Assembly: GCF_000576575.1 (NCBI RefSeq)
Contig: NZ_AWQS01000001.1
Location: forward strand, 1-64,000
Direction: 5' to 3'
DNA: 64,000 bases
Source: Intrasporangium chromatireducens Q5-1
Lineage (GTDB): Bacteria; Actinomycetota; Actinomycetes; Actinomycetales; Dermatophilaceae
Shown: positions 33,585 to 60,017 of the stretch, piece by piece
How the letters are laid out: each line of letters starts with the position of its first letter
Position numbering within the stretch: position 1 is the stretch's first letter
Position numbers and translations under genes: made by a program
Notes under the pieces: generated by a model
Told to the model about the DNA's origin: nothing
The model's input: the letters and a program-made list of their open reading frames with translations, nothing else
Database searches by the model: none

Positions 33585-33594
33585 GGGCGCCACC

Positions 33595-34140
33595 CTAGCC
33601 ACGGCAGTAGGCGCAGGGCCCAGTTGCAGGCAGGATGGTGAAGCACGTGATGCAAACGCGGTCACCCATCTTCTCGCCTCCGGAGTGAGCGGCGGATGAG
33701 GCCTTCTTTGTCGGCTTCATGGCTGAGGTGCTCCGGTCGCCTCGTTTCCGTGGTTGCTTGGCGACGCCCTTCTTGGGCTTCTTCAACCCATTCCGACTCG
33801 CCCGCTCGTCGATGCGCTCCTGGGCCGCTCGGGCACGCCGCCGGGTCTTGGTATGGGGGGCATCCGGTGGCACTTGGACATGTAGCCCGGGTAGGCCAGC
33901 GGCTCGAAGGATCTTGCGCGCTGCAGAGATGACTTTCTCGTCGTCGATGCACGGCTGGCATCGCGCGCCCCCCGGATACTTGGCATTGCACGTCCGGCAA
34001 CGCCGGTCCGGGTCGTGGTCTCCGCGGATATCGCGGATGTCGTTACCGGGGGCGGTTCTGCGCTCTGACCCGCCACGGGGTGCCAGGCGAACGAGACCTG
34101 GAGAGATGCCACCGCCGTGTAGACGGACGCGACCTCTCAC
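33595..34140 (-). CDS. double zinc-ribbon basic protein
   Basis: 181 residues from a GTG sharing GTGA with the exonuclease gene's stop. It holds two four-cysteine clusters: RRCRTCNAKYPGGARCQPC in the middle and VCITCFTILPATGPCAYC at the very C-terminus, both C-x2-C-x9-C-x2-C. Between them lies a highly basic Lys/Arg-rich linker (~70 residues). This suggests a nucleic-acid-binding partner of the exonuclease. I do not recognise a named family. Confidence 0.68.
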   Translation of the reverse strand: MRGRVRLHGGGISPGLVRLAPRGGSERRTAPGNDIRDIRGDHDPDRRCRTCNAKYPGGARCQPCIDDEKVISAARKILRAAGLPGLHVQVPPDAPHTKTRRRARAAQERIDERASRNGLKKPKKGVAKQPRKRGDRSTSAMKPTKKASSAAHSGGEKMGDRVCITCFTILPATGPCAYCRG

Positions 34141-35426
34141 GGTGCGACCTGTGACAGCAGCTTCTCGAAGGCGTCCTCTGTCACGACGGGGATGCCGTAG
34201 CGTCGTGCCTTCTCGGCCTTCCCGCTCAGTGAGTTGGGATCTGCCGCAACAAGGATCGCGGTGGACTTCGTCAGGCCACCACAAGAGAGGCCCTTCCGCT
34301 CGACTGCCTGTTCCCATGCCGAACGCGGACGGCCCATCTCTCCGGTGAAGCAGACCCGGTCCCCTGGGGACAACTTCAGGCCGGAGGTTGCCACCGCGCT
34401 CCCGGCGCGGTGGCGGCCGTGTTCCGGCTCTGCCGCGAGTTCCAGGGCCATGTTCACATCGCCATTGGCCAGTCCCAGCATGGCTGCGACCCGCTCGAGG
34501 TCAGCTCGCTCGTCCTCGGTCACGACGCCGTCATCCAGTGCCACTTCGGCCATGGCCCGAAGGTAGTCGGCGTGCAGGTCGATGACTTGTCCTCTGGTCA
34601 GTCCGCTCTCCAGAGCGACATTGATGAGCTGGTCCTTCTCGTGCTCCGCGAGAAATCGATCGACGAGGGCGGTCTCCAGGACGGCCAGATACCCATCGAC
34701 GCGCGGATCCGCCGCCCGCGGCATACGGGAGACGATGCGGTCCAGCCATTGATCCTGGGGGACATCCCGAGCCTGCCTGCGCCCGAAGATTCGCAATTCC
34801 GGGTAGACCCCTGGGAAGGGCGGCCACGTATAGCCCCGCGTGCTGTGAAGCCTCTCAAACCATGGCGGCTTGAAGTCCGACATGTTGAGGAAGTACGCCA
34901 AGAGCCCCGCGGTGGCGAGAGCGTCGCCCGCGGCGGAGTGTGCGTTTTCGAGCGGTAGGCCGCAGGCATTGCAGCAGTCCACCAACCGACGGCTTGCCCC
35001 GTTGATGAAGCTGGTTGACCACTGCATCGTGCACACGCCATGAAGCGGGAGGTTTTCAAGTGGTATGCCGGAGCGGATGAACTCGTGCGCGAGAAACCGT
35101 AGGTCGAAGGTTGCGTTGTGCGCCACGATCGTGCGGCCCTCAACAGCGCGGAGGATGTAGGGCGCCACTTGGCGAAACGTAGGCGCGTCGAGGACGTCAG
35201 TAGAGCTGATGCCATGAATCCGCGTCGGGCCGACGTCGCGTTGCGGATTCACAAGTGTCGACCAGTGGTCGCGTATATCCCCTTGGTCGGAGACATAGAC
35301 AACCGCGATCTCCACGATGCGATCGTGCTTCTCGGGAAAGAGGCCGGTTGTCTCGACATCAATGACGGTGTACCCGCTCACGCTTCGCGTCCCTCCCGTT
35401 TCGAGATCCTCGTCGAGCGGCACCAT
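34137..35426 (-). CDS. DEDDh exonuclease with C-terminal BRCT domain
   Basis: 429 residues. The DnaQ-like exonuclease domain (residues ~15-180) shows VIDVETTG (Asp, Glu), HNATFDLRFL (Asp) and HSAAGDALATA (His, Asp). A TerB-like helical region follows (ALDDGVVTEDERADLERVAAML, ~300-340). A C-terminal BRCT domain (DRVCFTGEMGRPRSAWEQ, IPVVTEDAFEKLL) ends the protein. This combination resembles actinobacterial epsilon-like repair exonucleases. It heads a three-gene operon. ATG 35426 or GTG 35423 may be used after GGAGG. Confidence 0.85.
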   Translation of the reverse strand: MVPLDEDLETGGTRSVSGYTVIDVETTGLFPEKHDRIVEIAVVYVSDQGDIRDHWSTLVNPQRDVGPTRIHGISSTDVLDAPTFRQVAPYILRAVEGRTIVAHNATFDLRFLAHEFIRSGIPLENLPLHGVCTMQWSTSFINGASRRLVDCCNACGLPLENAHSAAGDALATAGLLAYFLNMSDFKPPWFERLHSTRGYTWPPFPGVYPELRIFGRRQARDVPQDQWLDRIVSRMPRAADPRVDGYLAVLETALVDRFLAEHEKDQLINVALESGLTRGQVIDLHADYLRAMAEVALDDGVVTEDERADLERVAAMLGLANGDVNMALELAAEPEHGRHRAGSAVATSGLKLSPGDRVCFTGEMGRPRSAWEQAVERKGLSCGGLTKSTAILVAADPNSLSGKAEKARRYGIPVVTEDAFEKLLSQVAP

Positions 35427-35521
35427 AGTCCTCCACCCCGACAAGGCGCGATCATCTGCGCGTCCAGCGCGAATCCCTTCGAAACGCAGACACTTCTGAG
35501 CCATTGTGTGAGACTCCCCGC

Positions 35522-35968
35522 ATGGTTGCGCCGAGACGAAGGCCGGTGAAGACGTCCGCGACCACCGTGAAGCGCATGGTTGAGCCCGCGAACTGTCGCT
35601 GCGGTCGGCATGCCAAGACGTCGCCGCATCTCTGGTCCGTGTACGTCCTTGAGGTCGAGGGAACCGGCGGGGATGTGTACGTGGGTTGCACTTGGCATAG
35701 TCCAGAGGTCCGCCGACAGCAGCACATCGATGGTCCCAAGAAGGGCCGGGTATTCAAGAAGGCGGGAAACAGTGTGGGCGCTCTGCGCCCGGACTTGGTC
35801 ACCGATCTCGAGCCGCTGACGAACTTTGCACTGGCTCAGTCTGCGGAGACTTACCTCGCCGAGATCCTGAGATCCAAGGGGTTCACCTTCACGGCGGTCA
35901 CTGAGCCAACTTCCTCCGTCTCCGAGACGATGTGGCCACCGCGTGCTTCAATCGTTTTGACGCTTTGA
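35522..35968 (+). CDS. GIY-YIG-like nuclease-domain protein
   Basis: 148 residues. A basic N-terminus with a C-R-C motif is followed by WSVYVLEVEG and VYVGCTWHSPEVRRQQH, which fit the two-strand GIY-YIG core and its following arginine helix; the usual GIY and YIG triplets read VYV here. The last 50 residues are not conserved in any way I recognise. It is divergent from the exonuclease gene and lies directly before the Fe-S nuclease gene. Confidence 0.6.
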   Translation: MVAPRRRPVKTSATTVKRMVEPANCRCGRHAKTSPHLWSVYVLEVEGTGGDVYVGCTWHSPEVRRQQHIDGPKKGRVFKKAGNSVGALRPDLVTDLEPLTNFALAQSAETYLAEILRSKGFTFTAVTEPTSSVSETMWPPRASIVLTL

Positions 35969-35994: not shown

Positions 35995-38733
35995 TTGGGC
36001 TCGCTGAGCACAGGAGGAGGCAGCAGCGCGGTCGCGGCCTCGGCACATGCTGGCTGCGAGAGGTTCCGCCACACCGATCCGATGATCGTGGGGATGAGCC
36101 GGCGCAAGGTGGCCGCCCAGCTGGGCTTCCCCGACACAACCGCGGGCATTCCCGAGGCCCGCTGGATGCGGGCAATGACCTTCGAGCGACTCGTGCGCCA
36201 CGAACGGTTCGTCTCCCCGCTCATTACGACGACGATCGGCCGCCTCGGACTCCCACGTCCTGCTGGCGTGTGGCGCCGGGACGCGCGGGTCAGTGCGTCT
36301 GCAACTGCAACGGCGCTTGGACAGGCACACCTCAAAGCCGTTCACGAGGACGTCGCATCCCTCATCACCAGCCTGGCTCTGCCCTTCGTGGGTCTCGAGG
36401 ACGAGCCGTCCGCGACGCCTGTCAAGCCCGACTTCGCGGTCGTTGCACCGCGGCGCGATCCCGGCACTGACACGGTCATCGGTTCGTGGCTCGTCATGGG
36501 CGATGCCAAGGACTACGAGCGCGTCCGCTCGAGGATCGGCGACGCGCGCATGCTCAAGGGCTTCCTGCAGGTCGCCCTTGGCGCGGCGAGTGCCGAGGCG
36601 TGGTCGGCGCTCCCCAATGGTATGGCGGTGCATCGTTTCGGCGTCCTCGCTGTCCCACGGAATGCCTTTCTCCAGCCGGAGGCAGTGGTCGAGGACCTGA
36701 CGGACCACCGTGCGGAGGTCCTCGCCCGCGTGGCGGAGCGCAACGAGGTGCTCGCGGAGCGAGCCCAGAGTGAGCTCGCTCCGTCTGAGCTCCACGACTT
36801 CGTCGAGCACCTCGCCGCCGAATACGACCCCAGCTCCTGTCCCGCGTGTGCCATGTTCACGTTCTGCCGCAACGAGGTTCGCAACGCGACCGACCCAGAG
36901 GCGCTTCTCGTGGAGATCGGCGTGCGCAAGGAGCACCGGCCCGGCCTGCGCGGTCTGCTCGACCGGTCCGGCGTGACGGGGAGGGTGCCCGACTCCGTCG
37001 TCGCGTCCGTGCGCGCAACCATTGAAGGTATGCCGCTGAGTTCCGGTCAGCGGCGCATCGACCCCGCCGCGGTGGTTGGGTCGGTCAATGTGGTGCTCGC
37101 CAAGTCGGATGCCGCCGCTCTGGGCGTCCATGGGATCGCCCTGCAGCGCGTCCAGAAGTCAGGCAAGCCGACTGCCTGGGCCCTCCGCACCTTCGACGAC
37201 CCGCAAGCCCCCGCGACGCGCCTCGCCATCATGGATCTCTTGGGCAGCCATATCGACAGGGCCATGGCTGACTTAAAAGCGTTGGCACCGGGAGAGCCGA
37301 GCCCTGTGCACCTCGTCGTGCCGGACCAGGTCACGGCCGACGTCCTCGTCTCCATTGCAGACTCGCTCGCTGGCGTCGAGACGAGCCGGCTCCGCTGGGC
37401 CCGCGACTTGGAGCAGGGGCGCCCGGCCCTCACTTTCGACGGCGAGCCAGCCGTCGTGCCCAAGGCACTGACGGCGCGGCAGCGCCTTGCCGTCAGCTTC
37501 CTGCTCGAGGCCGACCGGGCCCGCGCCATGAAGTTGCGAATCCCGATCGTGGACCTTCGCGAGGTCATATCGCGACATGTTGTGGCCGGAGGACCCCAAG
37601 GCGATAGCGGCCGCCTGGACTACCTCGTCAGGTGGGCGGAGGCAACCGAGCCACTCGATCATCGTGCTGTGTCTGACGAGATTGCGGCCAGCGAGCACAC
37701 GCCGGGAGCCCGGCTCTCGAACGCGCGGTCCGACGCGATCCACCAGGCGCGCGGACGAAACGGAGCCCCGAAGAGGGGCCGCCGGCCGGGTTACGTGGAG
37801 CTCGTCGAGGAGGAGCTGGACTACAGGGTGGGCGTCGTGGACCGCGCGCTCGCCTACCTCTCCTCCATTGAGGACTCCCGACTACGGGAGATCTACCGGG
37901 CCCTGGAGGGCGATGCCCAGGCGATCTGGCGTAGACGCCTCCACCTTCACGCCTCCGACCTTGTCCGCTTGGGGAGGACCTCGTGGTGGTGGCGGAACAA
38001 CCTCGTCGACCTGCTGGACGAGGATGCTCGCTGTCTGTCCCAGTTGCAGGCACTGGGCAACCCTCAAGCCGCCAAGGACCTCGCGCTCGACGCCGGCACT
38101 CGCGAGGTGGCGCTCGCGACCGTGGTCGGTCTCGCCCCGATCCGGCTGCAATTGAATTCACGGCGGATCTCCGCCGGGTCGACAGTGGTCGTCCTGCACA
38201 TCAACGGCGAACCCTCGGTGGAGGCGCCCACCACGACGCGAAAGATCCAGAAGGGCTCGTTCAAGTTCGGCCAGCTCCCGATCGGGCCTCTCGAGAGTGA
38301 CGGCAGTGGCAGCGCAGCCGTTTGCTGGTCCCCCAAGGTTTGCCCCGCCCTCGAGGTTGGTGATGAGCTCGTCATCGCCGACGACGCATGGTTCAACCCG
38401 AAGGGTCCGTTCAAGTCTGGGCATGAGATCTCGGTGAGCAGGCCTGGGCAGGACACGGACAGCGCCCCGCAGGCAACCTGTGACGAGACCTCCTATTCCG
38501 ACGACCCGGAGAGCCACGCCTACTGCTGTCGACCACATGAACGAGCCGAGGCGGACACCGCCGACTGGATCGCCGAGCGCCGGGCGAGTGGTCGGATGAA
38601 CCCCGAGGTCTGGCCACCAATCGTCGACGACGACCAGTTCGACACCCCGGCCATAGGCGCGCCCACCGAGTCGGACGCAGCAGTTGTTGCGTCGAGCCCC
38701 AGCGAGTACCTGACGATCGATGACCTCGACTAG
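35995..38733 (+). CDS. Fe-S cluster PD-(D/E)XK nuclease, Cas4/Dna2-like, with beta-barrel C-terminus
   Basis: 912 residues from TTG 35995; GTG 35932 in the same frame is an alternative, but the codons before 35995 look non-coding. An N-terminal GCERFRH cysteine (~21), nuclease motifs KPDFAVV (~Asp146) and GDAKDYE (~Asp170/Lys172), then CPACAMFTFC (~282, 285, 291) reproduce the order of the Fe-S nuclease domain of Cas4, AddB and Dna2. The central ~400 residues are unassigned. The C-terminus (~750-830) is strand-rich and ends CPALEVGDELVIADDAWF, like the beta-barrel before the motor in Dna2/Upf1 helicases. It overlaps the helicase gene by 14 bases. Likely a DNA end-processing or defence nuclease. 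Confidence 0.72.
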   Translation: MGSLSTGGGSSAVAASAHAGCERFRHTDPMIVGMSRRKVAAQLGFPDTTAGIPEARWMRAMTFERLVRHERFVSPLITTTIGRLGLPRPAGVWRRDARVSASATATALGQAHLKAVHEDVASLITSLALPFVGLEDEPSATPVKPDFAVVAPRRDPGTDTVIGSWLVMGDAKDYERVRSRIGDARMLKGFLQVALGAASAEAWSALPNGMAVHRFGVLAVPRNAFLQPEAVVEDLTDHRAEVLARVAERNEVLAERAQSELAPSELHDFVEHLAAEYDPSSCPACAMFTFCRNEVRNATDPEALLVEIGVRKEHRPGLRGLLDRSGVTGRVPDSVVASVRATIEGMPLSSGQRRIDPAAVVGSVNVVLAKSDAAALGVHGIALQRVQKSGKPTAWALRTFDDPQAPATRLAIMDLLGSHIDRAMADLKALAPGEPSPVHLVVPDQVTADVLVSIADSLAGVETSRLRWARDLEQGRPALTFDGEPAVVPKALTARQRLAVSFLLEADRARAMKLRIPIVDLREVISRHVVAGGPQGDSGRLDYLVRWAEATEPLDHRAVSDEIAASEHTPGARLSNARSDAIHQARGRNGAPKRGRRPGYVELVEEELDYRVGVVDRALAYLSSIEDSRLREIYRALEGDAQAIWRRRLHLHASDLVRLGRTSWWWRNNLVDLLDEDARCLSQLQALGNPQAAKDLALDAGTREVALATVVGLAPIRLQLNSRRISAGSTVVVLHINGEPSVEAPTTTRKIQKGSFKFGQLPIGPLESDGSGSAAVCWSPKVCPALEVGDELVIADDAWFNPKGPFKSGHEISVSRPGQDTDSAPQATCDETSYSDDPESHAYCCRPHERAEADTADWIAERRASGRMNPEVWPPIVDDDQFDTPAIGAPTESDAAVVASSPSEYLTIDDLD

Positions 38734-40222
38734 AACCGTTCTGCGTTTCACGCCGCCCACTGCAAGGGTCGGCGACGCTCTCCATCACGCCTCGGCTGCC
38801 GCCGGCAACGTCGAGGCGACGACGCAGGCCATCGAGACCCTCTCTGACACGCTGACTGGCTCGGCGCCATACGAGAGGATCCTCCTGCGCGCCGCGGCGG
38901 GCGCTGGGAAGTCGTACGCGCTCAAGCGAATGGTTGAAGATGCGCTGGCGCATAGGAAGTGCGCGAGAGTCGGGGTCACCGCCTTCGCCAACAAGCAGGT
39001 CTTCCCGCTGGCCGAGGACCTCGGTCGCCAGCTGGGGCGGGAACGGGTCTGCATCTTGGTGTCGAGGGCTCGGGCTGCCGACGTGCCGGACACCCTGCTC
39101 GAGCATGCGACGGTCGTGTTCGGGATGAGCCAGCTGCCGGAGGAGGCAGAGGTCTTCCTCATGACCTCGCACATGCTGGAGCGGGCTGGATGGTCGATCA
39201 AGGACCAACTGGGACCGGCCGCGGACGGCGAGCACAGCTTCGACGTGCTCTTCGTCGATGAGGCCTGGCAGTTGCCCCTGCACCGCTATCGCAGGGTGGA
39301 CCGCTTCGCTCCCGTTGTCGTCGGCGTCGGAGACGTCGGCCAGCTGCCGCCGATCGACCCGAACCAGAACCCGTGGCGCGGAGACCCGGGCTACAACCCC
39401 TACCGTGCTTGGCCGACCGCCTACGCGGCTGATGCGGCGACGTGGTCGACGGACCTTCCAGCGGTGTGGCGACCGACGGCGGCCCAGCTGCCGCTGTGGC
39501 GAGCCTTCTACAGTGAGTGGGAGGGGTTGAACTGTGTTGCGGCGCCAGGTGATCGGTCCATTGTGTTGGGCCGTCGGCTGCGGGGAGATGCGTCCGCTGT
39601 CTGGTCCGAGGTCGCTGCAGGCGTGCCCACCCTTGTTGAGGTGGAGGGGCTCGACGAAGCCGAAGCAGCCGACATCGACCTGCCGCTGCTCGGTGTCGTC
39701 GAGGGGCTGCTGGATCAGCTGCTGAGGGTGGGCTTTGAGCTCCGCTCGGCACAGTACGACGGCGCTGGACTCCCGGTCGGCGAGCGTGTGGTGAAATCGG
39801 CCGACCCGCAGGGTGATCCACTGATCGCCGTTCTCGCGACCCGGAACCAGGCGGTCGACGACGCAACCGAGATGGTTGAGCGGCTGGTCGCCAAGCACGA
39901 CCTGGCTGATGGAGTGATCGTCGCCTCGACGGTCGACTCCTGGCAGGGCCAGACGAATGGCGTCACCGTTGCCATCCATCCACTGTCGGGAGCGTCAGCG
40001 CTCGACGAGTTCAACTCCGCCTTCGGGCGACTGGCTGTCACGTGCACGCGCGCGACGCACGGGTTGCTCATGGTGAGCCGGTCGGGATTGCGGGACCTGC
40101 TCGCCGTTGCGCCCGCCCGTCCGGGCATCCCGCTAGGTGAGCCTGGCCCAAGAGAGCTGCCCAGGCAGACCCACCAGCGGATCCTCGACGCGTTCGCCCG
40201 GACGACCATCGCTGGGACTTGA
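38720..40222 (+). CDS. SF1 helicase, Dna2/Upf1-like
   Basis: 500 residues. Walker A RAAAGAGKSYALKR (~58-71), Walker B VLFVDEAWQLPL (~176-187), motif III GVGDVGQLPPI (~202-212), motif V STVDSWQGQTNGVTV and motif VI RLAVTCTRATHGLLMVSR place it in superfamily 1B. It lacks its own N-terminal beta-barrel, which the preceding protein appears to carry, and its start lies inside the upstream nuclease gene. Nuclease and motor therefore probably work as one complex. A stand-alone helicase of a phage-defence module is the alternative. Confidence 0.85.
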   Translation: MTSTRTVLRFTPPTARVGDALHHASAAAGNVEATTQAIETLSDTLTGSAPYERILLRAAAGAGKSYALKRMVEDALAHRKCARVGVTAFANKQVFPLAEDLGRQLGRERVCILVSRARAADVPDTLLEHATVVFGMSQLPEEAEVFLMTSHMLERAGWSIKDQLGPAADGEHSFDVLFVDEAWQLPLHRYRRVDRFAPVVVGVGDVGQLPPIDPNQNPWRGDPGYNPYRAWPTAYAADAATWSTDLPAVWRPTAAQLPLWRAFYSEWEGLNCVAAPGDRSIVLGRRLRGDASAVWSEVAAGVPTLVEVEGLDEAEAADIDLPLLGVVEGLLDQLLRVGFELRSAQYDGAGLPVGERVVKSADPQGDPLIAVLATRNQAVDDATEMVERLVAKHDLADGVIVASTVDSWQGQTNGVTVAIHPLSGASALDEFNSAFGRLAVTCTRATHGLLMVSRSGLRDLLAVAPARPGIPLGEPGPRELPRQTHQRILDAFARTTIAGT

Positions 40223-41835: not shown

Positions 41836-41879
41836 AATAATCCCCTTCTCAAGAATTAAAATTAGTAGTTCTGCGGGAT

Positions 41880-41910
41880 AAAAAAAACTCCGCATCTCGA
41901 TCGATGCGGA
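41880..41910 (-). terminator. rho-independent terminator after the BREX operon
   Basis: On the minus strand TCCGCATC (41910-41903) and GATGCGGA (41896-41889) form an 8-base stem with a 6-base loop, followed after one G by eight U (41887-41880). This lies 135 bases past the brxHI stop and directly upstream of the zinc-knuckle operon. A U-tract terminator is uncommon in DNA this GC-rich. Confidence 0.85.
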
Positions 41911-42045
41911 TTGAGGAAGCATATTCAGATTCTGATTAACATCCGGACAACCGATGAGCGAATTAACCTGTGGGGTAACGCTATTCACGGGCAAGCACCT
42001 CAACAGGACTCAGGGTACGCCCAGCCAGGCTGGGCCGCAAGGGGT

Positions 42046-44211
42046 TCACGAGATATCGCTCGAAGGGCTGACGAGGGGGGTGCAGGCGACGACCTCTGCG
42101 CCCGGATGATCGCCATTCCGAGACGCCAAGGTCGCCACTGCCAGCTCCTGTGGAAGCAGCTCGGCGAACTTGAGCTTCCTCAGCGCCTGCTCGCTCACAG
42201 GCGGCACCGCGCCGGCCAGGTCGTCGCCCGCAACAGCCCGCGCCGCCCGCAGCGCGGACGCTACAGCGCCCGCCGTCGCGTCGGACCGCAATGGCACATT
42301 GAGGTTCCCCGCGCTCCACTCGTCGAGGAGCTCCGGTGCCACCAGGCCGAGCGCAGCGGTCAGCACCGCGTTGGCTCGCATCCCCGCGAACGTCCACCAT
42401 CGGACGCGCCCGTCCTCCTCTGCGACCACCCTCGCGTCCTCGGACACCCGATGCGCATACTGCGCGCGCAGCGCCTCGAGCCGGGCCACCGCACGCGTCG
42501 ACAGCACCACCCCGGACGGGGTGGCCCCGAGCAGCACCCGACGGATCGCATTCGACAGCTCGAACGAGTAGGCCCGGGGTTCACCCATCCACGCGGATCG
42601 CCCCGCCCGATCGCTCGGCTCGACGTGGGCCCGCCGCCGACGCCAGTCGACGTGCTTGACCTCCCATGGTCGGCCGGCCAGCGCGATGACCCGCGGGCCA
42701 GCCGCCTTCGTCACCAACAGCATCGGGTCGATGCTGCCGACCTCCCGTCGGCCATGCAGCACCGTCAGCTCCGGCGCGGCGGTGAAGACGGCCAGCAGCT
42801 CCATGAAGTTGCGCCGTCCATACCGCGCCTCCGCCGTCGGCCCGACGAACGCCAGCCCTTGGTCGACGTCGAGGTGTTCCGTCGCGACGAGCCACCGGCC
42901 GATCGACTCGAGCTCATCGCCCCCGGCCAGGCCCAGGTGCTCCATCCATGCGGCCTCATCCTCAAGGGAGATCCGGCCCTTTTGCAGCGCCGTCCCGAGG
43001 AGCTGCTGTGCAGCGATGTGCAGCGGAGATGGCGGCGCTACGACCGGCTCGACGAACCCCTCACCCAACAGCAACAACAGTCCGGCGGCCCGGAGGAAGT
43101 CCTCGTCTTCGACTCCAAGGAACGTCATGTTTCGTGACGTCCCAGGACGCCGCCCGGTCCGTCCGAGTCGCTGGAGCACCGACGCGACGGTCGCAGGGGC
43201 CCCGAGCTGGATCACTCGATCGAGGTCGCCGACGTCGATCCCGAGCTCGAGAGTCGAGGTCGACACGATGACGCAGTCGCGCGCCGTCGCGAAGGCGGAC
43301 TCCGCCCGGCGCCGCTCGTCGAGCGACAGCGACGAGTGGGACACGAACGTCTCGACCTCGAGCGCGCGCAGCTCCACGGCGAGCGACTCCACCGTCTTGC
43401 GCGAGTCCGCGAAGACGAGCCGCTTCTCACCCAGATGTATGCCGCTCAAGACCTTCGCGGCGTTCCTGACGTTCCCGACGTAGTCGAGTGAGAGCTCGGG
43501 CGCTCCAGCGCTCTCGACAGCAGGTGCCACGACCGACCGCGGCCGGGCCGCCGAGTGTCGGCCCCCCTGCAACCATGAAAGCAGCGCCTCCGGATTGCCG
43601 ACCGTGGCGGACAGACCGATCCGCTGCAACGGCCGTCCCGCAACGGAACTCAGCCGTTCGAGCACAGCAAGCAGGTGCCAGCCCCGGTCGTCCCCGGCGA
43701 AGGCGTGGACCTCGTCGACGACGACGGCCTGCAGGTCCCGGAACATGTGCTCCGCGTCGAGCAGCCGCGAGACGAGCATCGCTTCCAGCGACTCGGGGGT
43801 TGTCAGCAGGATTGAGGGACGGTTGACCGCCTGTCGTTTGCGGTCACCTGCACCGGTGTCGCCATGCCGGACTTGGGCCGCCCGGCCCAGCCACGCGGCA
43901 TACGCGGCAACTCTCGGTTCCAGATTGTTGAGCAGTGCCTTGAGCGGGCAGACGTAGAGCACGGACAGACCGGTCCAGGCCTCGTGCTCCATCCGGGTCA
44001 GCAGCGGGAAGAGCGCCGCCTCCGTCTTGCCCCCGGCTGTCGGCGCGATGAGCAGGCAGTCCTCCCCGCGAAGGACAGGCTCCACGGCGGCCGCCTGCAA
44101 GGGTCGCAGGCCGGACCAGCCCAGGGCGTTGACCACGTGGTGCTGCACGACCGGATGAAGCCGGTCGAAGGCCGCCAGCTCCGACGACGTGCCGGACGCC
44201 ACGTCAGTCAT
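42046..44211 (-). CDS. brxHI: BREX-2 Lhr-like helicase BrxHI
   Basis: 721 residues. Walker A APTAGGKTEAALF (~56), DEVH box VVVDEVHAFAG (~170), SAT motif IGLSATVGNPEAL, and helicase C motifs ELGIDVGDLDRVIQ and QRLGRTGRR are intact, followed by the winged-helix and C-terminal domain of Lhr-type helicases. Adjacent brxD, pglZ, pglY, pglX and pglW identify it as the helicase of a type 2 BREX (Pgl) system. It overlaps brxD by 8 bases and is the last gene of the operon. Lhr homologues unwind DNA or RNA-DNA hybrids; its precise task in phage restriction is not known. Confidence 0.92.
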   Translation of the reverse strand: MTDVASGTSSELAAFDRLHPVVQHHVVNALGWSGLRPLQAAAVEPVLRGEDCLLIAPTAGGKTEAALFPLLTRMEHEAWTGLSVLYVCPLKALLNNLEPRVAAYAAWLGRAAQVRHGDTGAGDRKRQAVNRPSILLTTPESLEAMLVSRLLDAEHMFRDLQAVVVDEVHAFAGDDRGWHLLAVLERLSSVAGRPLQRIGLSATVGNPEALLSWLQGGRHSAARPRSVVAPAVESAGAPELSLDYVGNVRNAAKVLSGIHLGEKRLVFADSRKTVESLAVELRALEVETFVSHSSLSLDERRRAESAFATARDCVIVSTSTLELGIDVGDLDRVIQLGAPATVASVLQRLGRTGRRPGTSRNMTFLGVEDEDFLRAAGLLLLLGEGFVEPVVAPPSPLHIAAQQLLGTALQKGRISLEDEAAWMEHLGLAGGDELESIGRWLVATEHLDVDQGLAFVGPTAEARYGRRNFMELLAVFTAAPELTVLHGRREVGSIDPMLLVTKAAGPRVIALAGRPWEVKHVDWRRRRAHVEPSDRAGRSAWMGEPRAYSFELSNAIRRVLLGATPSGVVLSTRAVARLEALRAQYAHRVSEDARVVAEEDGRVRWWTFAGMRANAVLTAALGLVAPELLDEWSAGNLNVPLRSDATAGAVASALRAARAVAGDDLAGAVPPVSEQALRKLKFAELLPQELAVATLASRNGDHPGAEVVACTPLVSPSSDIS

Positions 44212-45544
44212 CGGCGCCGATGTCGAGGACGATGTCGTCCAGGGACCCGCCAGCGCCTGCCGTCCGCTCCTCCATCGTCAGCTCGCTGGTGTTCACCGTC
44301 AGCGCATAGTGCTGCCGCGGGTCGAAGTCGTCATACACATCAACCCGGTCGAGCACGTCCGCGACGAGCTTCTTGAGGAACACCCGGGGTGCGACGCCGA
44401 CCCGGCCACCCAGCCGGCCAGCGACCGCGCCTGCGAGCTCAGCGACATACCCGTCATCGACGTGAGTCCGCACCCTCGACTCGTGGGGCGAGCCGCCGGC
44501 ATACAGGTCTCTCACCTTCACCCCGAGCGAGACGAGCGAGGAGTGGTCGAAGCCCGGCAGGCGGATCTGCACGGCCCGGGGGTTGTCGAAGCGTGGGTCG
44601 GTGGTGAAGTCGGTCGCGAGCCGCTGTGCGAGCGGGGGCAGCCGCGGCACACCGGACGGACCCTCGAAGAAGGCCGGTGTCCCCGTGATGAGCAGGTAGA
44701 GCCCCGGGAAGCGTCCGGCGTCGACCTCGTCGATGAGCTGTCGCAGCGCGTTGAACGCCTTGTCCCGCACATCGCCGCGCACGCGCTGCAGCGTCTCGAC
44801 CTCGTCGAGGACGAGCACGAGCCCGGGATGGCCGGCGTCGCGCAGCACGGTGAGCAGCCCCTGCAAGAACCCCATCGCGCCGAAGTGGTCGAGCTCGCCT
44901 CGGATGCCGGCGGAGCGCTTCGCAGAGGCGGCCACTTGCGGTTGGCCACCCATCCATGCGGCGAGGCCGTCGGCTGCGGCGGCGTCCCCGCCGACGACGG
45001 CGCGCCGATACCCGCGCAGCGCCTGGGCGAAGACCGGGGTGCGTGAGCTGACCGCAGCCAGCCGGCGCTCGAGCAAGGCGTCGACTGCTGCGGTCATGGA
45101 GGACTCGTCGGCGAAGCCCAATGATGGGTCGGCCTCAATGGCGTCCGACTCGAGCGTGAAGAGCCACGAGTCGAGGATCTGCCGGAAGGCGCTGGGCTGC
45201 ACCGAGGAGGTCCGGAGCGATTCGGTGATCCGGCGATACACCGTCTCGAGCCGGTGCAGCGGCGTTTCTGTCTCGGAGATCTGCACCTCCGCCGCGGCGA
45301 ACCCCTGCTTGAGCGCGCGCTCGGAGAGATGCCGCGTGAAGAACGTCTTGCCAGCGCCGTAGTCGCCGCGGATGGCCTTGAAGACCGAGCCACCGCCCGC
45401 GACCGTCTCGAGCTCACCATCAAGAGCCGGCGTGTAGCGGTCGAGCCCGACAGCGAGCAGGTCGAGACCCGCCTCCGGCACGGTCCCGCGGCGCAGGGCG
45501 CCGATCACCTCGGTCCGTCGACGGTTCGACACCTCCATCGTCAT
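44204..45544 (-). CDS. brxD: BREX-2 ATP-binding protein BrxD
   Basis: 446 residues. Walker A KAIRGDYGAGKTFFTRHL (~57-74), Walker B LVLVLDEVETLQRVR (~248) and a C-terminal domain of about 150 residues make this an AAA-type ATPase of the BrxC/D group. Four-base overlap (ATGA) with pglZ and 8-base overlap with brxHI indicate one transcript. It is an essential component in type 2 BREX, although its step in restriction is not defined. Confidence 0.9.
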   Translation of the reverse strand: MTMEVSNRRRTEVIGALRRGTVPEAGLDLLAVGLDRYTPALDGELETVAGGGSVFKAIRGDYGAGKTFFTRHLSERALKQGFAAAEVQISETETPLHRLETVYRRITESLRTSSVQPSAFRQILDSWLFTLESDAIEADPSLGFADESSMTAAVDALLERRLAAVSSRTPVFAQALRGYRRAVVGGDAAAADGLAAWMGGQPQVAASAKRSAGIRGELDHFGAMGFLQGLLTVLRDAGHPGLVLVLDEVETLQRVRGDVRDKAFNALRQLIDEVDAGRFPGLYLLITGTPAFFEGPSGVPRLPPLAQRLATDFTTDPRFDNPRAVQIRLPGFDHSSLVSLGVKVRDLYAGGSPHESRVRTHVDDGYVAELAGAVAGRLGGRVGVAPRVFLKKLVADVLDRVDVYDDFDPRQHYALTVNTSELTMEERTAGAGGSLDDIVLDIGADD

Positions 45545-48348
45545 GCGCTCACCCCGAACTGCTCGCGGAGCAACCGTTGGTCGAGCACGACGGTCTGCCC
45601 GTCGGCGTCGACGCCGACGACGTTGTAGCCCTCGACGTTGAGCAGCTGACGCACCTGACTCAGTGCGCCGTCGACGCGGAAGGCCGGCACGCCGAGGGTC
45701 GTCGCGACGACGGTGCGCGACAGGCGAGCCCCGGAGGCGCTGCTGAGCGCATCGAGCAACGACCGCACCTGGTCGTCCCGGATCGCCAATCGCGGCAGGG
45801 TCTTTCGCTGTGCCGCGTAGACGTCGGTGGCGCAGACCTTGGCGCCCACCGACTCGCTAACGCGGGCTCCGTCGGCCGGCGCGTCCGCGGGCTCGTCGAA
45901 GAGCGTCGGACCGTGGTCGACGGGTCCCTTTCCGCCACGAGAAGGTATGCCGCTCAGCTCGCTCCGCAGATCAGGCGCAGCCGGCGCCCCGGCAGTCACG
46001 AGGGCGTTTGCGGTCGACCACCACAGCGGCTCCTGAGGTGCAAGGAGCGGCAGCCCTAGGTCGTTAGTCTTGTCGTCGGGCAGCAGCACCACGACGGGGA
46101 CGACGACCTCCTGGGCGCTTGCCCCACCGTGGTATCCGGCCTTGAGTGGCCCGTAGCGCAGGCCCTCGCGCACCGCGAGGATCGCGCTGTGGTCGTCAGT
46201 AAGGACGCGCCGGCCGATGACAAGCACCTCGTCATCCTGGGCGGGGGCGGAAGTGCCGCGGGACCGGCCGCTTGTGAGGTCGGCCGATGGCCGTTGGTCG
46301 CCACGTCGCCGCTCGACGACGTGACCGTGGTCGGCGGTCATGATCACCGTGCGGCCGGCGGCGCGGGCCCGGCTGAGCAGCGCCGAGAGGTGCTTGACCT
46401 CGTCGGTGGCCCACACCTTGCCGACGGGGTCGCTGCGGTCGAGCGCGTCGTCGATGCTGTTGAGCACGACGGTGACGAGCCTCGTCCCCTCTCGGTCGTC
46501 GATGGCGGCACCGACTCCGTCGGCGACGAGGGCGCCGGGTCTGGTCGTGTCGACGCCCTTCTTGTGGAAGAGGGCGGCGCTGATCTTGCCTGCCCTCTGT
46601 GTCAGCTCTGCATAGCCAGCACGCTCGACATCCTGGCCACCCCGCGTGAGCGTGCCGCACAGCAGTGAGGCCCGGCTCACCTCGGTGAGCGAGGGCAGCA
46701 CGGCCAGGGCGCCTGCCCGTCGGCTCGCGCCTTGCGATGCCCCGGCTTCGACCCAGCCGAGCGACCCGGTCGCGTCCGCGATGATCTCGGTGGCCGCGGC
46801 AGCGCTCATGCCGTCCATGACGAGCAGCAGCGTTGGCGTCTTCTTGGCCATCGGCATGACGAGCCCGGACATGAGCGCCTCGAGGTTCCACACCGGGGCC
46901 GGCAGTCCCTCTGATGCCGCGGCAGGGTTCAGGTCAGAGCTCACCGCCTGGGCCAGCCGACGGGCGAAGCCGTGCTCCTCACGCTGCCGGCGGGCCACCG
47001 CCGCGTCGTAGACGAGGTGAAGGGCTGTCGACAGCTCCTCGTCGTCGACGCCAGTGTCGACATCGTTGATCGCGGCATCGGCCCAAGCGCCATGGTCGAG
47101 GTGGGATCGCACGTGCTCGACCAGCGCGGCGTCATCCGGCAGCTCCGGAGAGACCAGCCACCGCCAGAGCCGGACGGCGGAGCGGAAGGCGACGACCTCG
47201 CCCGAGGGGCGGTGTCGCTGCGCGAGGCGGTGGCGTTCGCAGAGACGCCAGGCCTTCTCGATCGCCTCTGTTGCCGCTGGTTCACTCGGTCCGCCGAGCG
47301 CTGCGACGCCTCGACGCAGGGTGGCGCCGAGCAGGGCGAGCCGCCTCCGGAAGCCACTCGCGAGCAGGTCCGAGTGGATGGTGAGCGAGGCCGCGTCGAG
47401 GTCGGCGAGGTGCTGGTCAGCGCGCTGCAGGATCCGCTCGACATGGGCGTCGTTCCGGTCGTTGCGGGCCAGCTCTGACACGACCGCCACGGCGGCGGAG
47501 CCGAGGGCGGACAGAGCGTCAGCCGAGGGCAACGGCTTGCCGAGCAGTGGCTCGAGCCGCACCCTGGCCAGTGCCGCGACTTGAGACTCGCCGGCATCGA
47601 GGTGTGGCGAGCCGATGACGCTGAGAGCCAAGCCGATTGGCACGAGGTCGTGGACCGAGGAGTGCTGAATGATGCGCCGAACGGGTGTCTCCGCGGGTCC
47701 GGTGCTCTCGGCGACCCAGTCGAGCATGGCGTCGGCGAGCGCGTCGCCGAAGTCCTCACGCAGCCTTTCAAGGGCGCCCATCGACTGCGGAGGCACCGAC
47801 CAGTTGAGAACGGTGATGGCGTCGATGACGTCGCCGACCAGACCCAGGTGCTCGCGGGCCACGCTCGAGAAGGCATGCGCGCGCGTGAGGACTCCGGCCG
47901 GGGCCGGTGGCCAGCCAGTTGCCGGCTTCGCAGCCAGCAGTCCGGTGGCGACCTCACGACCGTTCCGGACCTTCGTCAGCGAGGGCGCGACCCCGGTGGC
48001 CGAGAACGACTGGCGGATGGCCTCCCATGCATTGGGGCGGCGCAGGTTGTTGCCGACCAAGTGCGCGAGGACGCCGGCCCCGAGATCGTGCTCGGAGCGG
48101 TCGGTCACGATGACCGTCCAGTCGCCGTCACGGTGCTCACGCAGCACCTCCCGCGCGGCCAGGGCCGACCCCGCAGCGCGGATGACGACCCGTTGGCCCT
48201 CGTGGGTCAGCTCGGTGTCCTGAGCCGAGTCTGGGCGACCAAGGACCCCGATGATGCCCGAGGGGTATTTGCTCCGTTTGACGATGTCGATGATCGCCAA
48301 CAGCATCGGCCGGTCGACCGGCAGCACCGAGCTCGTCGTGACGGTCAC
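45541..48348 (-). CDS. pglZ: BREX-2 alkaline-phosphatase-fold protein PglZ
   Basis: 935 residues. The PglZ phosphatase-superfamily core appears in the middle (LLLVMDGMSAAAATEI, ~509; VIMTADHGHV, ~671). Long N- and C-terminal regions are typical of type 2 PglZ; the C-terminus has a small winged-helix-like region (TLGVPAFRVDGALSQVRQLL). PglZ is the marker protein present in all BREX types. It overlaps pglY by four bases. In Streptomyces Pgl, PglZ is linked to nucleic-acid modification/toxicity control by the methyltransferase. Confidence 0.92.
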   Translation of the reverse strand: MTVTTSSVLPVDRPMLLAIIDIVKRSKYPSGIIGVLGRPDSAQDTELTHEGQRVVIRAAGSALAAREVLREHRDGDWTVIVTDRSEHDLGAGVLAHLVGNNLRRPNAWEAIRQSFSATGVAPSLTKVRNGREVATGLLAAKPATGWPPAPAGVLTRAHAFSSVAREHLGLVGDVIDAITVLNWSVPPQSMGALERLREDFGDALADAMLDWVAESTGPAETPVRRIIQHSSVHDLVPIGLALSVIGSPHLDAGESQVAALARVRLEPLLGKPLPSADALSALGSAAVAVVSELARNDRNDAHVERILQRADQHLADLDAASLTIHSDLLASGFRRRLALLGATLRRGVAALGGPSEPAATEAIEKAWRLCERHRLAQRHRPSGEVVAFRSAVRLWRWLVSPELPDDAALVEHVRSHLDHGAWADAAINDVDTGVDDEELSTALHLVYDAAVARRQREEHGFARRLAQAVSSDLNPAAASEGLPAPVWNLEALMSGLVMPMAKKTPTLLLVMDGMSAAAATEIIADATGSLGWVEAGASQGASRRAGALAVLPSLTEVSRASLLCGTLTRGGQDVERAGYAELTQRAGKISAALFHKKGVDTTRPGALVADGVGAAIDDREGTRLVTVVLNSIDDALDRSDPVGKVWATDEVKHLSALLSRARAAGRTVIMTADHGHVVERRRGDQRPSADLTSGRSRGTSAPAQDDEVLVIGRRVLTDDHSAILAVREGLRYGPLKAGYHGGASAQEVVVPVVVLLPDDKTNDLGLPLLAPQEPLWWSTANALVTAGAPAAPDLRSELSGIPSRGGKGPVDHGPTLFDEPADAPADGARVSESVGAKVCATDVYAAQRKTLPRLAIRDDQVRSLLDALSSASGARLSRTVVATTLGVPAFRVDGALSQVRQLLNVEGYNVVGVDADGQTVVLDQRLLREQFGVSA

Positions 48349-51300
48349 TCGCGCACCTGCCAGCTGACGTCCACCTCTCGGTCGCCGTGGCTCTCGAGGA
48401 ACTGCCGCACCTGGCGCAGCAGCTCATCGTTGCTCGCGCCCGGTGCCCGTCGGGCGTTCCCACGGATGCTGGAATCGAGGGGAGGTGGAGTCGGGTCAGG
48501 CTTGGGTGGCCTTCTGCGGGCGAGCCACTCGAAGATCTCACGATCGGCTTGCCCAAGAGCGGTCGCTGCCGCCGATACGATCTCGTCGCCGCCGATCGCC
48601 TTCTGCAGTCTTTGGACAATGCCAGCAGCGGTGTCGGACTCCTCGCCCTCACCCTGCATGGCCTGACGCACTGGAGCGAGCCGGTCCCACTCGAAGCTCC
48701 GAAGTGCCATCGTCACCGCTTCGGCCGACGACAGTGACTTGCCGGCAGCGGCTGCGCCCGTGCCGAATCCGGCCGTGGCGATGCGCTGCACGAGGGCCAC
48801 GCCGTCAAGGTTCCGCAGCTGCTGGACCAGCTCTGCGGTCCGACGGGCTGTGGTCAACCGATCGGTGGCGTCGCCCGCATCGATGCCGACTCGCTCGTTC
48901 GCCACCTCGATGGCCGTGACGAGATCTGGCTGCACCTGCGCGAGCGTGGTCGCGCGCGTCCTGACCTGACCGACGAAGTCGGCGACTCCGGGCGCGGTGA
49001 GGAAGGACGCGCCGTGCACCCCGAAGAGCTGAGCCGCCGCCGCTGTCGCGTCAGTCCACTCCGCCTGCGTTGGCATCGGCTGCGAGCGCAGCTCCATGCT
49101 GGGCTGCAACTGCCCCGGCTCGGGAGCAGCAGGCAGAGCAGAGCCATGGTTGAACCACGCACGTTGCCGCAGCGCGGCCCACGTGATGATGACGAGGTCG
49201 CTCATCGGAGTCACGAGACCCTTGGCCGGCGTCACCGCATCGATCCACGAGCGCATCTCGGCCACGGTCACCGGGTCATCCGGTGAGACGCCGCTCTCCT
49301 GCTGGCGTCGCCCGAGCGCCCGCTCGAGCTCCTGGCTCCACGGGGTGAAGCGGTCGTCGCCGAGGATGTAGTACATCTCGGAGGCCGTGCCGACACCGAG
49401 CGGCCCGGCGATACGCCGAACGCTCGCCTGGTCGCCTTGATACTCGACCCGCTTCTCCTTGTCGGCAACGGCCCGGTGCACGTGCGCGGCGACCGCCCGC
49501 AGCTGCGGCAGCCGGATCTCGACGTCGCCCGGCTCGAAGTGCGGGTGCCCCGGATAGGTCGCGTCATAGGCCTGCTCGACGAGGTGCCGGAACGCGTCAC
49601 CGAGCGTCGCGCCGACCGGCCGCTGCGGCACGAACTCCCGGTCGAGGGAGACGAGGATCCGGTCATGACCCGGGTCGTCGAGGAGCGTGTTGGGTCGACG
49701 GCTCGCGGCGCCATACGCCTGCTGGATCGCGTCCTCGAGGCTGCGCCGCAGCGTGCTGCGATGCGACTCGAGGATGTTGCGCGCCAGCGCACGATCGGTC
49801 TCGCTCAGGTGGTCGGCGTGCGCCTGCCAGCGCTCGCCGGACCCTTCGAGGAGCCAGCCGAGGATGACGAGCCGGCTCAGCTCGGTGACCTTCTCCGGCG
49901 CGAGGAAGTAGGGGAGCCAGACGATGGTGCGTGACTGGAAGTCACGGGCGATCATGCCCTCGAGTCGCTCGAGGTCCTCGCTCGTCGAGTGTCCCTGCTC
50001 GTCGAAGGGGTGGTCGATGACGAGGCGCCAGCTGCCGGGGTTGGCGCGGAAGTGGTCCTCGGAGAGCCAGCTGCTGTCGCGGACGTTGCCGAAGATGACG
50101 TCGACCTTGCGCCGCGTCCCGCGCCAGATGACCTCGTGCTCGTAGGCGCCTTGGATGTCGGGCTTGTCGAGGTCGATGCCGAGGCTCTCCGCAACGAGCG
50201 TCTTGACGAGCTCGCGCCGGCGACCCTCGTTGTCCTCGCCCTTGGCCCGGTCGACGATCGACTCGTAGTCGACGTCGGACAGCTGCACCCGGACGGTCGG
50301 GTTGGCGCCGGCGCCGTCGATGCGGATCTCGGGCACGTCCCTGGCCCACGTGCGCACCTTGGAGAGCACGACGCTCGCCTCGTTGCCGGGCAGCGGGGAC
50401 AGGATCGACCCGTGGTTGAGCGACGCGAGTCTGGCGCCGGTCAGCGACTTGAGCGCGGGCACGTTCGGCGCGACGGCAGAGAGCAGCAGCGTCTTGGCGA
50501 GCCGGTCGTCGGAGCGGTATGCCGCTGACACCGTCTCGGGTGCGTCGCGCAGTTGCGCTTCGGTGACGTTGTGCTGCTCGCGCAGGAGCCGCTGCAGCTT
50601 CTCCGAGTAGAGCTTGTTCGCCGACTTGAAGAGGGCGGCCGCGTCGGCGTCGAGGACCTGGTTGCCTCGGACGATGTAGTCGAAGGAGTCGCCGACCGGG
50701 ATGACGCTGTCGACCGTGAGGGTCTCGCGCTGGTCGACGAGCATCTGCTGCATGACCTTGAGCGCGGTGCGCTCGCGCTGCATCACCGAGGCGAGGGCAC
50801 GGAGCGTCGACACGAGCGCGGGCGAGAAGGGATAGGTGAGACGGAACGCCTTCTCGTCGGCGCCGCGGTGGCTGTCGTCGGTGTTGACGCCGTCGAGCAG
50901 CACGTCCCAGACCCGCGGGTTGCGGTCGATCCGCTCGAAGGCGTCGGCGATGACCTGCTTGGCGTGCTCGTCCTTGGGTCGGAGCAGCCGCTTGCTCGCG
51001 ACGTAGGGCAGGTTCTCGTCGCCGAGCTTGATCGTGGCGAAGCGGCCCTCCTGGTGCTTGAAGGCCCGGTCGAGGGCCTCCTGCTCTGCGCCGCTTGCGC
51101 CCGAGTCGGCGAACCAACGCCGCAGGTCCATCTGGCGCGCGACGAAGGAGATGAGGGGGATGTCGCGAACGCCCGTCGACGACTCGACGAGCTTGGTCAG
51201 CTTCTGCGCCTCCCGCGCGAAGAACTCCTTGTTCGAGACCTGGAAGGCGAGCCACAGCACGAGCTCGTCGAGGAAGAGCACGACGGCGTCATACCCGAGG

Positions 51301-52067
51301 GCTTTTGCGTGGCGGGCGATTGCGGCGAGCCCGGTGTCGATGTCGACGAACTCCGCCTGCTGCGTGTAGGCCCCGAAGTACGTGTCGACGAGGGCGCTCG
51401 CGAGCTGCTGGCGCTCCTCCGATGACGGATCCAACGAGCGGGCGAGGCCGTAGGACTCGGCGTTCCACGTGCCGGTGTTGAGCACGCCGCCCCACACGTC
51501 ATCGGGTGCTGAGGCAGCGTTCTTGTTGAGTCCCGCGAAGAACTCGTCGTCGCCGAGGCGCGACCGCAGCCGGTCCGCGTCCGCGAGGAGTGCATCCGAC
51601 TTGTGCACGGCCGGCAGCGGTGCGTCGGGGTGCAGGGCTTTGACCTGCCGCAGGTAGCCGTCGAAGAGCGCCTGCTCGAGGCTCTTGGCGCCGAGCAGGT
51701 GGAAGGCGAGGGGGAGGATCTTGCGCCCCTCGAGGTCCGGGTCGTGCTTGGCGATGACGACCTGGAGGTCCTGCTGAGCCCGGGCCGCCGGCTCGTGCGT
51801 CAGCAGCGCATGGAGCACTGCCATGAAGTGCGACTTACCGGACCCGAACGAGCCAGCGAGGAACGCGCCGCGGCTGACCCCGGAGGTGACCGCCTCCCCA
51901 ACCAGGCCCAGGGCCTGGTCGAAGGCTGCTGCGAGCGCAGGCGTGACGACGTAGTTCGCGATCGTCGACTCCGCCGCGGAGTGGCCCACGGAGTCAGTCA
52001 GCCGCAGGACGTAGTCCTCCGCCCCGGTGTGCTCCGGGATCCGGATGACGTCTTTGAGCAGTGTCAT
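48345..52067 (-). CDS. pglY: BREX-2 ATPase PglY
   Basis: 1240 residues. Walker A AGSFGSGKSHFMAVLHAL (~71-88), Walker B DAVVLFLDELVLWLAF (~260) and a very long C-terminal region are characteristic of PglY, the large BrxC-like ATPase of type 2 BREX. It overlaps both neighbours by four bases (ATGA). PglY ATPase activity is required for Pgl phage resistance in Streptomyces coelicolor, as I recall the literature. Confidence 0.92.
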   Translation of the reverse strand: MTLLKDVIRIPEHTGAEDYVLRLTDSVGHSAAESTIANYVVTPALAAAFDQALGLVGEAVTSGVSRGAFLAGSFGSGKSHFMAVLHALLTHEPAARAQQDLQVVIAKHDPDLEGRKILPLAFHLLGAKSLEQALFDGYLRQVKALHPDAPLPAVHKSDALLADADRLRSRLGDDEFFAGLNKNAASAPDDVWGGVLNTGTWNAESYGLARSLDPSSEERQQLASALVDTYFGAYTQQAEFVDIDTGLAAIARHAKALGYDAVVLFLDELVLWLAFQVSNKEFFAREAQKLTKLVESSTGVRDIPLISFVARQMDLRRWFADSGASGAEQEALDRAFKHQEGRFATIKLGDENLPYVASKRLLRPKDEHAKQVIADAFERIDRNPRVWDVLLDGVNTDDSHRGADEKAFRLTYPFSPALVSTLRALASVMQRERTALKVMQQMLVDQRETLTVDSVIPVGDSFDYIVRGNQVLDADAAALFKSANKLYSEKLQRLLREQHNVTEAQLRDAPETVSAAYRSDDRLAKTLLLSAVAPNVPALKSLTGARLASLNHGSILSPLPGNEASVVLSKVRTWARDVPEIRIDGAGANPTVRVQLSDVDYESIVDRAKGEDNEGRRRELVKTLVAESLGIDLDKPDIQGAYEHEVIWRGTRRKVDVIFGNVRDSSWLSEDHFRANPGSWRLVIDHPFDEQGHSTSEDLERLEGMIARDFQSRTIVWLPYFLAPEKVTELSRLVILGWLLEGSGERWQAHADHLSETDRALARNILESHRSTLRRSLEDAIQQAYGAASRRPNTLLDDPGHDRILVSLDREFVPQRPVGATLGDAFRHLVEQAYDATYPGHPHFEPGDVEIRLPQLRAVAAHVHRAVADKEKRVEYQGDQASVRRIAGPLGVGTASEMYYILGDDRFTPWSQELERALGRRQQESGVSPDDPVTVAEMRSWIDAVTPAKGLVTPMSDLVIITWAALRQRAWFNHGSALPAAPEPGQLQPSMELRSQPMPTQAEWTDATAAAAQLFGVHGASFLTAPGVADFVGQVRTRATTLAQVQPDLVTAIEVANERVGIDAGDATDRLTTARRTAELVQQLRNLDGVALVQRIATAGFGTGAAAAGKSLSSAEAVTMALRSFEWDRLAPVRQAMQGEGEESDTAAGIVQRLQKAIGGDEIVSAAATALGQADREIFEWLARRRPPKPDPTPPPLDSSIRGNARRAPGASNDELLRQVRQFLESHGDREVDVSWQVRE

Positions 52068-55648: not shown

Positions 55649-55673
55649 CCCGGCAACTCCTTCTCCATCACGG

Positions 55674-59927: not shown

Positions 59928-60017
59928 GTTGGTTGCTCTCCCCGAGTTCTCGCTCACTGACCCCAGCATTCGGGACAATACCCTCCCAGGCGGACAGGAC
60001 CAGGCCCGACTCCTATG

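What the first reader, a model, noticed from the sequence alone, without database searches (positions are those of the whole stretch)
35995..40222. Split Dna2-like machine: Fe-S nuclease and SF1 helicase in two overlapping genes
The order Cys - PD-(D/E)XK - Cys-x2-Cys-x5-Cys, then a long linker and a beta-barrel, then a separate gene with the complete SF1B motor, is the order of Dna2 cut just before its motor. The gene starts overlap and both products are otherwise unmatched. A dedicated nuclease-helicase for DNA ends or for phage defence is likely, possibly with the GIY-YIG-like protein upstream.
Basis: partly seen in the sequence, partly recalled or inferred. Interest (0 to 1): 0.62.

Follow-up and report, generated by a model that had tools for sequence, protein, structure and literature searches.

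The report
Two-gene Dna2-like nuclease-helicase defence module
Two overlapping bacterial genes encode an iron-sulphur DNA nuclease and a matching DNA motor that always travel together in actinobacteria, usually beside restriction or other anti-phage systems, so they probably form a previously undescribed machine for destroying foreign DNA.

Summary
At 35995-38733 (+) lies a 912-aa protein (NUC) with an N-terminal Cys, PD...D-x-K and C-x2-C-x5-C, the signature of 'iron-staple' RecB/Cas4/Dna2-type nucleases. At 38720-40222 (+), overlapping by 14 bp, lies a 500-aa SF1B helicase (HEL) whose best solved-structure match is Dna2 (Foldseek E 2e-14). I found about 60 homologous loci, all in Actinomycetota, some on Rhodococcus plasmids. 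NUC and HEL are adjacent wherever the contig allows, and never fused. The four Cys, the PD motif and the catalytic Lys are invariant.

NUC also has a central, possibly RNase H-like domain and an invariant C-terminal Cys/His cluster. The pair sits in an operon with type III Mod-Res (18 loci), beside a type ISP enzyme (15), other type III (2) or type I (2) systems, in this window beside a complete type 2 BREX, and in about 20 loci with no restriction system within 10 kb. The tree shows repeated partner switching.

Best reading: a helicase-nuclease that degrades foreign DNA, able to stand alone but often coupled to ATP-dependent restriction. Function and complex formation are inferred. The GIY-YIG partner idea is not supported. 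Closest precedents: Bad/Dna2 and UvrD-Cas4 fusions of type III loci.

The parts
35995..38733 (+). NUC: 912-aa iron-staple PD-(D/E)XK nuclease protein, TTG start
   Evidence: AlphaFold2 mean pLDDT 90.4
36055..36057 (+). C21, first cluster Cys
36427..36432 (+). P145-D146, nuclease motif II (PD)
   Evidence: 56/56
36502..36510 (+). D170-A-K172, nuclease motif III (D/E-x-K)
   Evidence: D 55/56, K 56/56
36838..36867 (+). C282-x2-C285-x5-C291, remaining cluster Cys
   Evidence: 56/56 each
37081..38094 (+). central domain, RNase H-like order of elements in the model (residues about 363-700)
   Evidence: secondary structure; weak RNase H/Hsp70/glucokinase fold hits
38479..38538 (+). C829, H841, C844, C845, H848: invariant Cys/His cluster, probable metal site
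   Evidence: 56/56 each
38720..40222 (+). HEL: 500-aa SF1B (Upf1/Dna2-type) helicase
38720..38733 (+). 14-bp overlap of NUC stop and HEL start
38891..38914 (+). HEL motif I AAAGAGKS
39257..39268 (+). HEL motif II DEAW
39329..39352 (+). HEL motif III GDVGQLPP
39923..39958 (+). HEL motif V region ASTVDSWQGQTN
40028..40054 (+). HEL motif VI RLAVTCTRA
42046..59978 (-). context, not part of the module: complete type 2 BREX (BrxHI, BrxD, PglZ, BrxC/PglY, PglX, PglW)
34137..35504 (-). context: PADLOC candidate PDC-S48 (DEDDh exonuclease plus BRCT)
35504..35968 (+). context: GIY-YIG-like ORF, not a consistent partner

Best explanation
NUC and HEL are two subunits of one DNA-degrading machine that works like bacterial Dna2 (Bad): HEL, an SF1B motor, loads on single-stranded DNA or an ss-ds junction and translocates; NUC, carrying an Fe-S-stapled PD-(D/E)XK domain, cuts the DNA strand as it is fed through. 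Its main job is most likely anti-phage/anti-plasmid defence: attacking ends or forks of foreign DNA, including ends made by a neighbouring ATP-dependent restriction system (type III, ISP, I) or DNA singled out by BREX, with some loci working alone. Shown: sequence signatures, invariance, constant pairing, tree congruence, genomic context. Inferred: complex formation, polarity, substrate, cluster occupancy, and the defence role itself.
For: Invariant nuclease and cluster residues and helicase motifs. Pairing in 59/59 records, median gap 2 bp, never fused. NUC and HEL distances correlate at r 0.91-0.93, against NUC-Mod 0.18 and NUC-Res 0.63 in the same loci. HEL best fold = Dna2, then IGHMBP2/Upf1; NUC nuclease fold near MGME1/RecE. 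Operon with Mod-Res (HEL-Mod gap under 60 bp in 14 of 17) and ISP within 311 bp in 15 of 16 records. Genome-level co-occurrence with the same Res family p 4e-5 and with full-length ISP p 6e-4 in about 390 genomes. Partner switching on the tree, 14 changes. Plasmid-borne copies. Patchy: 4 of 98 relatives, 9 of 395 in the class counting fragments.
Against: About 20 loci have no restriction system within 10 kb and some sit among housekeeping genes, so a role in repair or elsewhere is possible. No complex was modelled. The own genome also has a fused TM0106-type helicase-nuclease, so a Dna2-like activity is not unique to this pair. Linkage inside defence islands can occur without functional coupling. 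The RecB-family QxxxY motif is not present in its usual form (KGFLQVALG).
Confidence: 0.55

Rival explanations
1. NUC-HEL is the cutting subunit of the restriction systems it sits with: the type III Res beside it translocates but cannot cut, and recruits NUC-HEL as its nuclease.
For: The Res beside NUC-HEL ends in PDF...DPHG (Lys replaced by His in 17 of 18; L067 not matched by the pattern), and the unrelated Res in L029/L039 has PDF...IEVSGG (Lys replaced by Ser). The two intact Mod-Res loci without NUC-HEL have another nuclease nearby: a UvrD-PDDEXK fusion (L091) or an HNH protein (L092). The genes form a four-gene operon.
Against: The type ISP partners keep an intact Mrr-type nuclease domain. 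NUC-HEL also stands alone. PD-(D/E)XK enzymes with other residues at the Lys position can be active (general knowledge).
Confidence: 0.17
2. NUC-HEL is a DNA repair or end-resection pair, co-selected with restriction systems to repair self-inflicted breaks or replication damage.
For: Dna2 and AddAB do this; stand-alone loci among housekeeping genes; UvrD-Cas4 fusions, which also neighbour NUC-HEL, were proposed to have ancillary DNA-processing roles (PMC5704561).
Against: Very patchy distribution, plasmid carriage, partner switching and defence-island context, a decayed copy in Nocardia elegans.
Confidence: 0.15
3. NUC-HEL is a fully independent two-gene immune system, like Gabija, and its nearness to restriction and BREX genes is only defence-island clustering.
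For: About 20 loci without any restriction partner within 10 kb; other defence genes nearby in some.
Against: The type III and ISP links are too tight and recurrent (same operon, or divergent within 311 bp) for loose island clustering.
Confidence: 0.13

Closest known systems
Bad, the bacterial DNA2-like helicase-nuclease of Geobacillus (PMC7430649), and eukaryotic Dna2
   Same: Four-Cys iron-staple nuclease N-terminal to an SF1B motor; an extra central domain of unknown kind also exists in Bad; HEL's best fold match is Dna2.
   Different: Here two separate genes and never fused; no sequence similarity found for NUC; extra C-terminal Cys/His cluster; linked to restriction systems, a link not mentioned in the passages of the Bad paper read here.
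TM0106 family (TIGR03491): fused RecB-like nuclease, DEDD/RNase H-like domain, SF1B helicase
   Same: Same order of parts, including four Cys and a middle RNase H-like domain; HEL matches its motor (hhalign 96%, E 3e-9).
   Different: One polypeptide; NUC shows no profile similarity to it; a normal TM0106 protein is present elsewhere in this genome.
UvrD-Cas4 fusions linked to type III restriction (PMC5704561)
   Same: SF1 helicase plus Cas4-like nuclease linked to Mod-Res and sometimes stand-alone; such fusions (family F5) sit near NUC-HEL in 12 loci.
   Different: UvrD-type (SF1A) motor, single fused gene, no RNase H-like domain.
Nuclease-protease pairs acquired by several immune systems (PMC12799240)
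   Same: A two-gene effector pair recurrently joined to unrelated immune systems.
   Different: Different enzymes and activation; no protease here.
AddAB / RecBCD / AdnAB
   Same: Multi-subunit helicase-nuclease; AddB carries the iron-staple nuclease.
   Different: SF1A motors, housekeeping, not known as parts of restriction operons (general knowledge).

Membership tests
Iron-staple (Fe-S) RecB-family nucleases | Four conserved Cys, one before and three (C-x2-C-x5-C) after the nuclease motifs | tested here: met
Iron-staple (Fe-S) RecB-family nucleases | PD...(D/E)xK catalytic residues | tested here: met
   P145, D146, K172 56/56; D170 55/56
Iron-staple (Fe-S) RecB-family nucleases | PD-(D/E)XK fold | tested here: inconclusive
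   MGME1, RecE and lambda exonuclease among the best fold matches, probability up to 0.99 but E 0.02 or worse; a phage exonuclease at E 1.9e-3, probability 0.99. Likely met.
Iron-staple (Fe-S) RecB-family nucleases | QxxxY motif | tested here: inconclusive
   Q192 invariant but followed by VALG
Iron-staple (Fe-S) RecB-family nucleases | Bound 4Fe-4S cluster | not testable with these tools
   needs purified protein
SF1B (Upf1/Dna2) helicases | Motifs I, II, III (GDxxQLPP), V and VI of SF1B type | tested here: met
Dna2 / Bad | Nuclease and SF1B helicase in one polypeptide | tested here: not met
   separate genes in all loci
Dna2 / Bad | Detectable homology along the nuclease part | tested here: inconclusive
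   no Pfam or PDB-sequence match; Dna2 not among the listed fold matches of NUC; Bad sequence not at hand
TM0106 (TIGR03491) | Profile match over nuclease and RNase H part | tested here: not met
   NCBIfam scan of NUC empty
UvrD-Cas4 fusion of type III loci | UvrD-type SF1A motor fused to PF12705 nuclease | tested here: not met
   F5 is that kind of protein
Known PADLOC defence systems | Match to a PADLOC model over most of the protein | tested here: not met
   none for NUC, only E 0.04 to 0.07 for HEL

The most novel reading that the evidence does not exclude
The pair is an exchangeable cutting module: a family of type III-like systems whose Res has lost its usual catalytic Lys hands DNA to NUC-HEL (or, elsewhere, to a UvrD-Cas4 fusion or HNH nuclease), so that recognition/translocation and destruction are separate, swappable parts, the same pair also serving ISP, type I and BREX systems.
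Probability: 0.17. Interest if true: 0.8.

Novelty: new variant of a known kind. Interest (0 to 1): 0.55.

Why it matters
It adds an undescribed helicase-nuclease pair, absent from the defence and protein-family libraries searched, that recurs with four kinds of ATP-dependent restriction or modification systems. If it degrades DNA after recognition by those systems, it would show that their cutting or clean-up step can be outsourced to a portable module; the loss of the usual catalytic Lys in two unrelated type III Res families beside it makes that directly testable. It also gives a natural two-subunit Dna2-like enzyme in which nuclease and motor can be studied apart.

Tried and rejected
GIY-YIG neighbour as a component: rejected, 2 of about 60 loci. 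Fused homologues: none found in genome contigs, class and phylum samples, plasmids or phages; the Nocardia elegans hit that runs from NUC into HEL is a frameshifted remnant. Viral relatives by sequence: none. Remnants of Mod, Res, ISP or Hsd genes around the window pair: none. Membership in TM0106 by profile: not met for NUC. Dead type III nuclease as full explanation: weakened by intact ISP nucleases, Res copies without NUC-HEL and stand-alone loci. A complex could not be predicted: single chains only. One family scan failed on wrong coordinates.

Full report
Observation. NUC (35995-38733) and HEL (38720-40222) are real, co-directional and overlap by 14 bp. The TTG start at 35995 is preceded by AAGGG and matches where homologues begin. 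NUC has C21, P145-D146, D170-A-K172 and C282-x2-C285-x5-C291. Across 56 homologues these are invariant except D170 (Val in one); C21 was found in every row that reaches it and in the DNA upstream of the 12 truncated rows checked. HEL keeps all SF1B motifs in 51 homologues. Neither protein is named by Pfam, NCBIfam, PADLOC or PHROGs beyond weak generic helicase hits to HEL, and NUC has no PDB sequence relative.

Structure. The AlphaFold2 models are confident (NUC pLDDT 90.4, pTM 0.91; HEL 85.4, pTM 0.85). HEL's best solved match is Dna2 (5ean, E 2.3e-14), followed by IGHMBP2 and Upf1. NUC's nuclease matches MGME1, RecE and lambda exonuclease (probability up to 0.99, but E 0.02 or worse, so suggestive only). 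The middle of NUC (about 363-700) has a strand/helix order like an RNase H fold and draws weak RNase H, Hsp70 and glucokinase matches; whether it is catalytic is unknown, although D444, D449, D456 and D471 are invariant and D372 nearly so. A C-terminal C829/H841/C844/C845/H848 cluster is invariant. A giant-virus protein (Yasminevirus A0A5K0U8I2, 892 aa) matches NUC over 789 columns (E 8e-7, TM-score 0.36).

Distribution. A scan of 84,980 species genomes gave 56 loci, all in Actinomycetota; plasmid records gave two, both Rhodococcus; viral and phage collections gave none. In evenly drawn samples, 4 of 98 close relatives and 9 of 395 genomes of the class have a match, two of the nine being short fragments, so the pair is rare and patchy. 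NUC and HEL are adjacent in all 59 records that hold both (L022 and L074 are one locus), median gap 2 bp, 25 overlapping; L031 and L080 end before HEL. They are never fused. Their distances are strongly correlated (r 0.91; 0.93 within type III loci), far above NUC-Mod (0.18) (Mod also carries the variable target-recognition domain).

Context. In 18 loci NUC-HEL is followed by a type III Mod and a Res-like helicase, with HEL-Mod gaps mostly under 60 bp and Mod-Res overlapping by 4 bp. In 15 distinct loci it lies next to a single-chain type ISP enzyme, usually divergent within 311 bp. Two loci have another type III pair (L029, L039), two a type I system (L015, L016/L026). The window has a complete type 2 BREX beginning 1.8 kb away. 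Roughly 20 loci show no restriction genes within 10 kb; some sit among metabolic or housekeeping genes, and three are undecided because the contig ends. On the NUC tree the type III and most ISP loci fall in two well-supported sides, with switches to BREX, type I and other type III on the ISP side and to ISP on the type III side; 14 changes in all. In the genome samples, co-occurrence with the Res family (p 4e-5) and with full-length ISP (p 6e-4) is far above chance (samples of 395, 395 and 385 genomes drawn the same way, so the tables are approximate).

Partners' nucleases. The type III Res beside NUC-HEL has PDF...DPHG, i.e. His at the Lys position, in 17 of 18 (L067 not matched), and the unrelated Res of L029/L039 has PDF...IEVSGG. 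Res of the DPHG type also occur without NUC-HEL (L091, L092, L093): near a UvrD-PDDEXK fusion, near an HNH protein, or with a broken Mod. A more distant Res (L094) keeps E-G-K. ISP enzymes keep D...Q-x-K. So an outsourced-nuclease model is possible for type III loci but cannot explain all contexts.

Mechanism. By analogy with Bad, which is a 5'-3' ssDNA translocase and ssDNA endonuclease with a four-Cys cluster (PMC7430649), I infer that HEL pulls DNA and NUC cuts it, and that the substrate is foreign DNA, including ends made by neighbouring restriction systems. The complex, polarity, metal occupancy and defence activity are untested.

Known relatives. Dna2/Bad and TM0106 have the same order of parts in one chain; TM0106 is present elsewhere in this genome, and its motor but not its nuclease is detectably similar. 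UvrD-Cas4 fusions linked to type III Mod-Res were described in PMC5704561 and correspond to the F5 neighbours here. NUC-HEL is thus a new variant of RM-linked helicase-nucleases, with a Dna2-type motor, separate genes and extra domains. Literature searches found no description of this pair, within the open-access library only.

Noticed in passing
window 42046-59978 (-): Complete type 2 BREX (Pgl) cluster: BrxHI, BrxD, PglZ, BrxC/PglY, PglX, PglW.
   Followed up: partly
window 34137-35504 (-): DEDDh exonuclease with TerB-like and BRCT parts, near full-length match to PADLOC candidate PDC-S48.
   Followed up: no
window 40419-40790 (-) and 41521-42003 (-): Two short paralogous ORFs (31% identity, E 6e-9) ending in C-x2-C-x-W, flanking an unmatched 237-aa ORF between HEL and BREX.
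   Followed up: partly
window 62090-63979 (+): Schlafen group 3-like helicase protein whose family also occurs in five other NUC-HEL loci.
   Followed up: partly
window 35504-35968 (+); L028 14261-14578: GIY-YIG-like small protein next to NUC-HEL in two loci, 57% identical, on opposite ends of the pair.
   Followed up: yes
L013, L018, L044, L050 and other type III loci: Type III Res subfamily with DPHG in place of the usual D/E-x-K nuclease motif.
   Followed up: partly
L029 14220-17267; L039 14212-17262: A second type III Res with IEVSGG (no Lys) beside NUC-HEL.
   Followed up: partly
L065 after HEL: Short remnants of Mod and Res directly after HEL in Cellulomonas sp. Leaf395, i.e. a decayed four-gene operon.
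   Followed up: no
L081 10001-10513 and following: Frameshifted, internally deleted NUC-HEL remnant in Nocardia elegans.
   Followed up: yes
window 32862-33665 (-); L013 11069-11737: DUF6308 gene near NUC-HEL in the window and directly upstream of it on the Rhodococcus plasmids.
   Followed up: no
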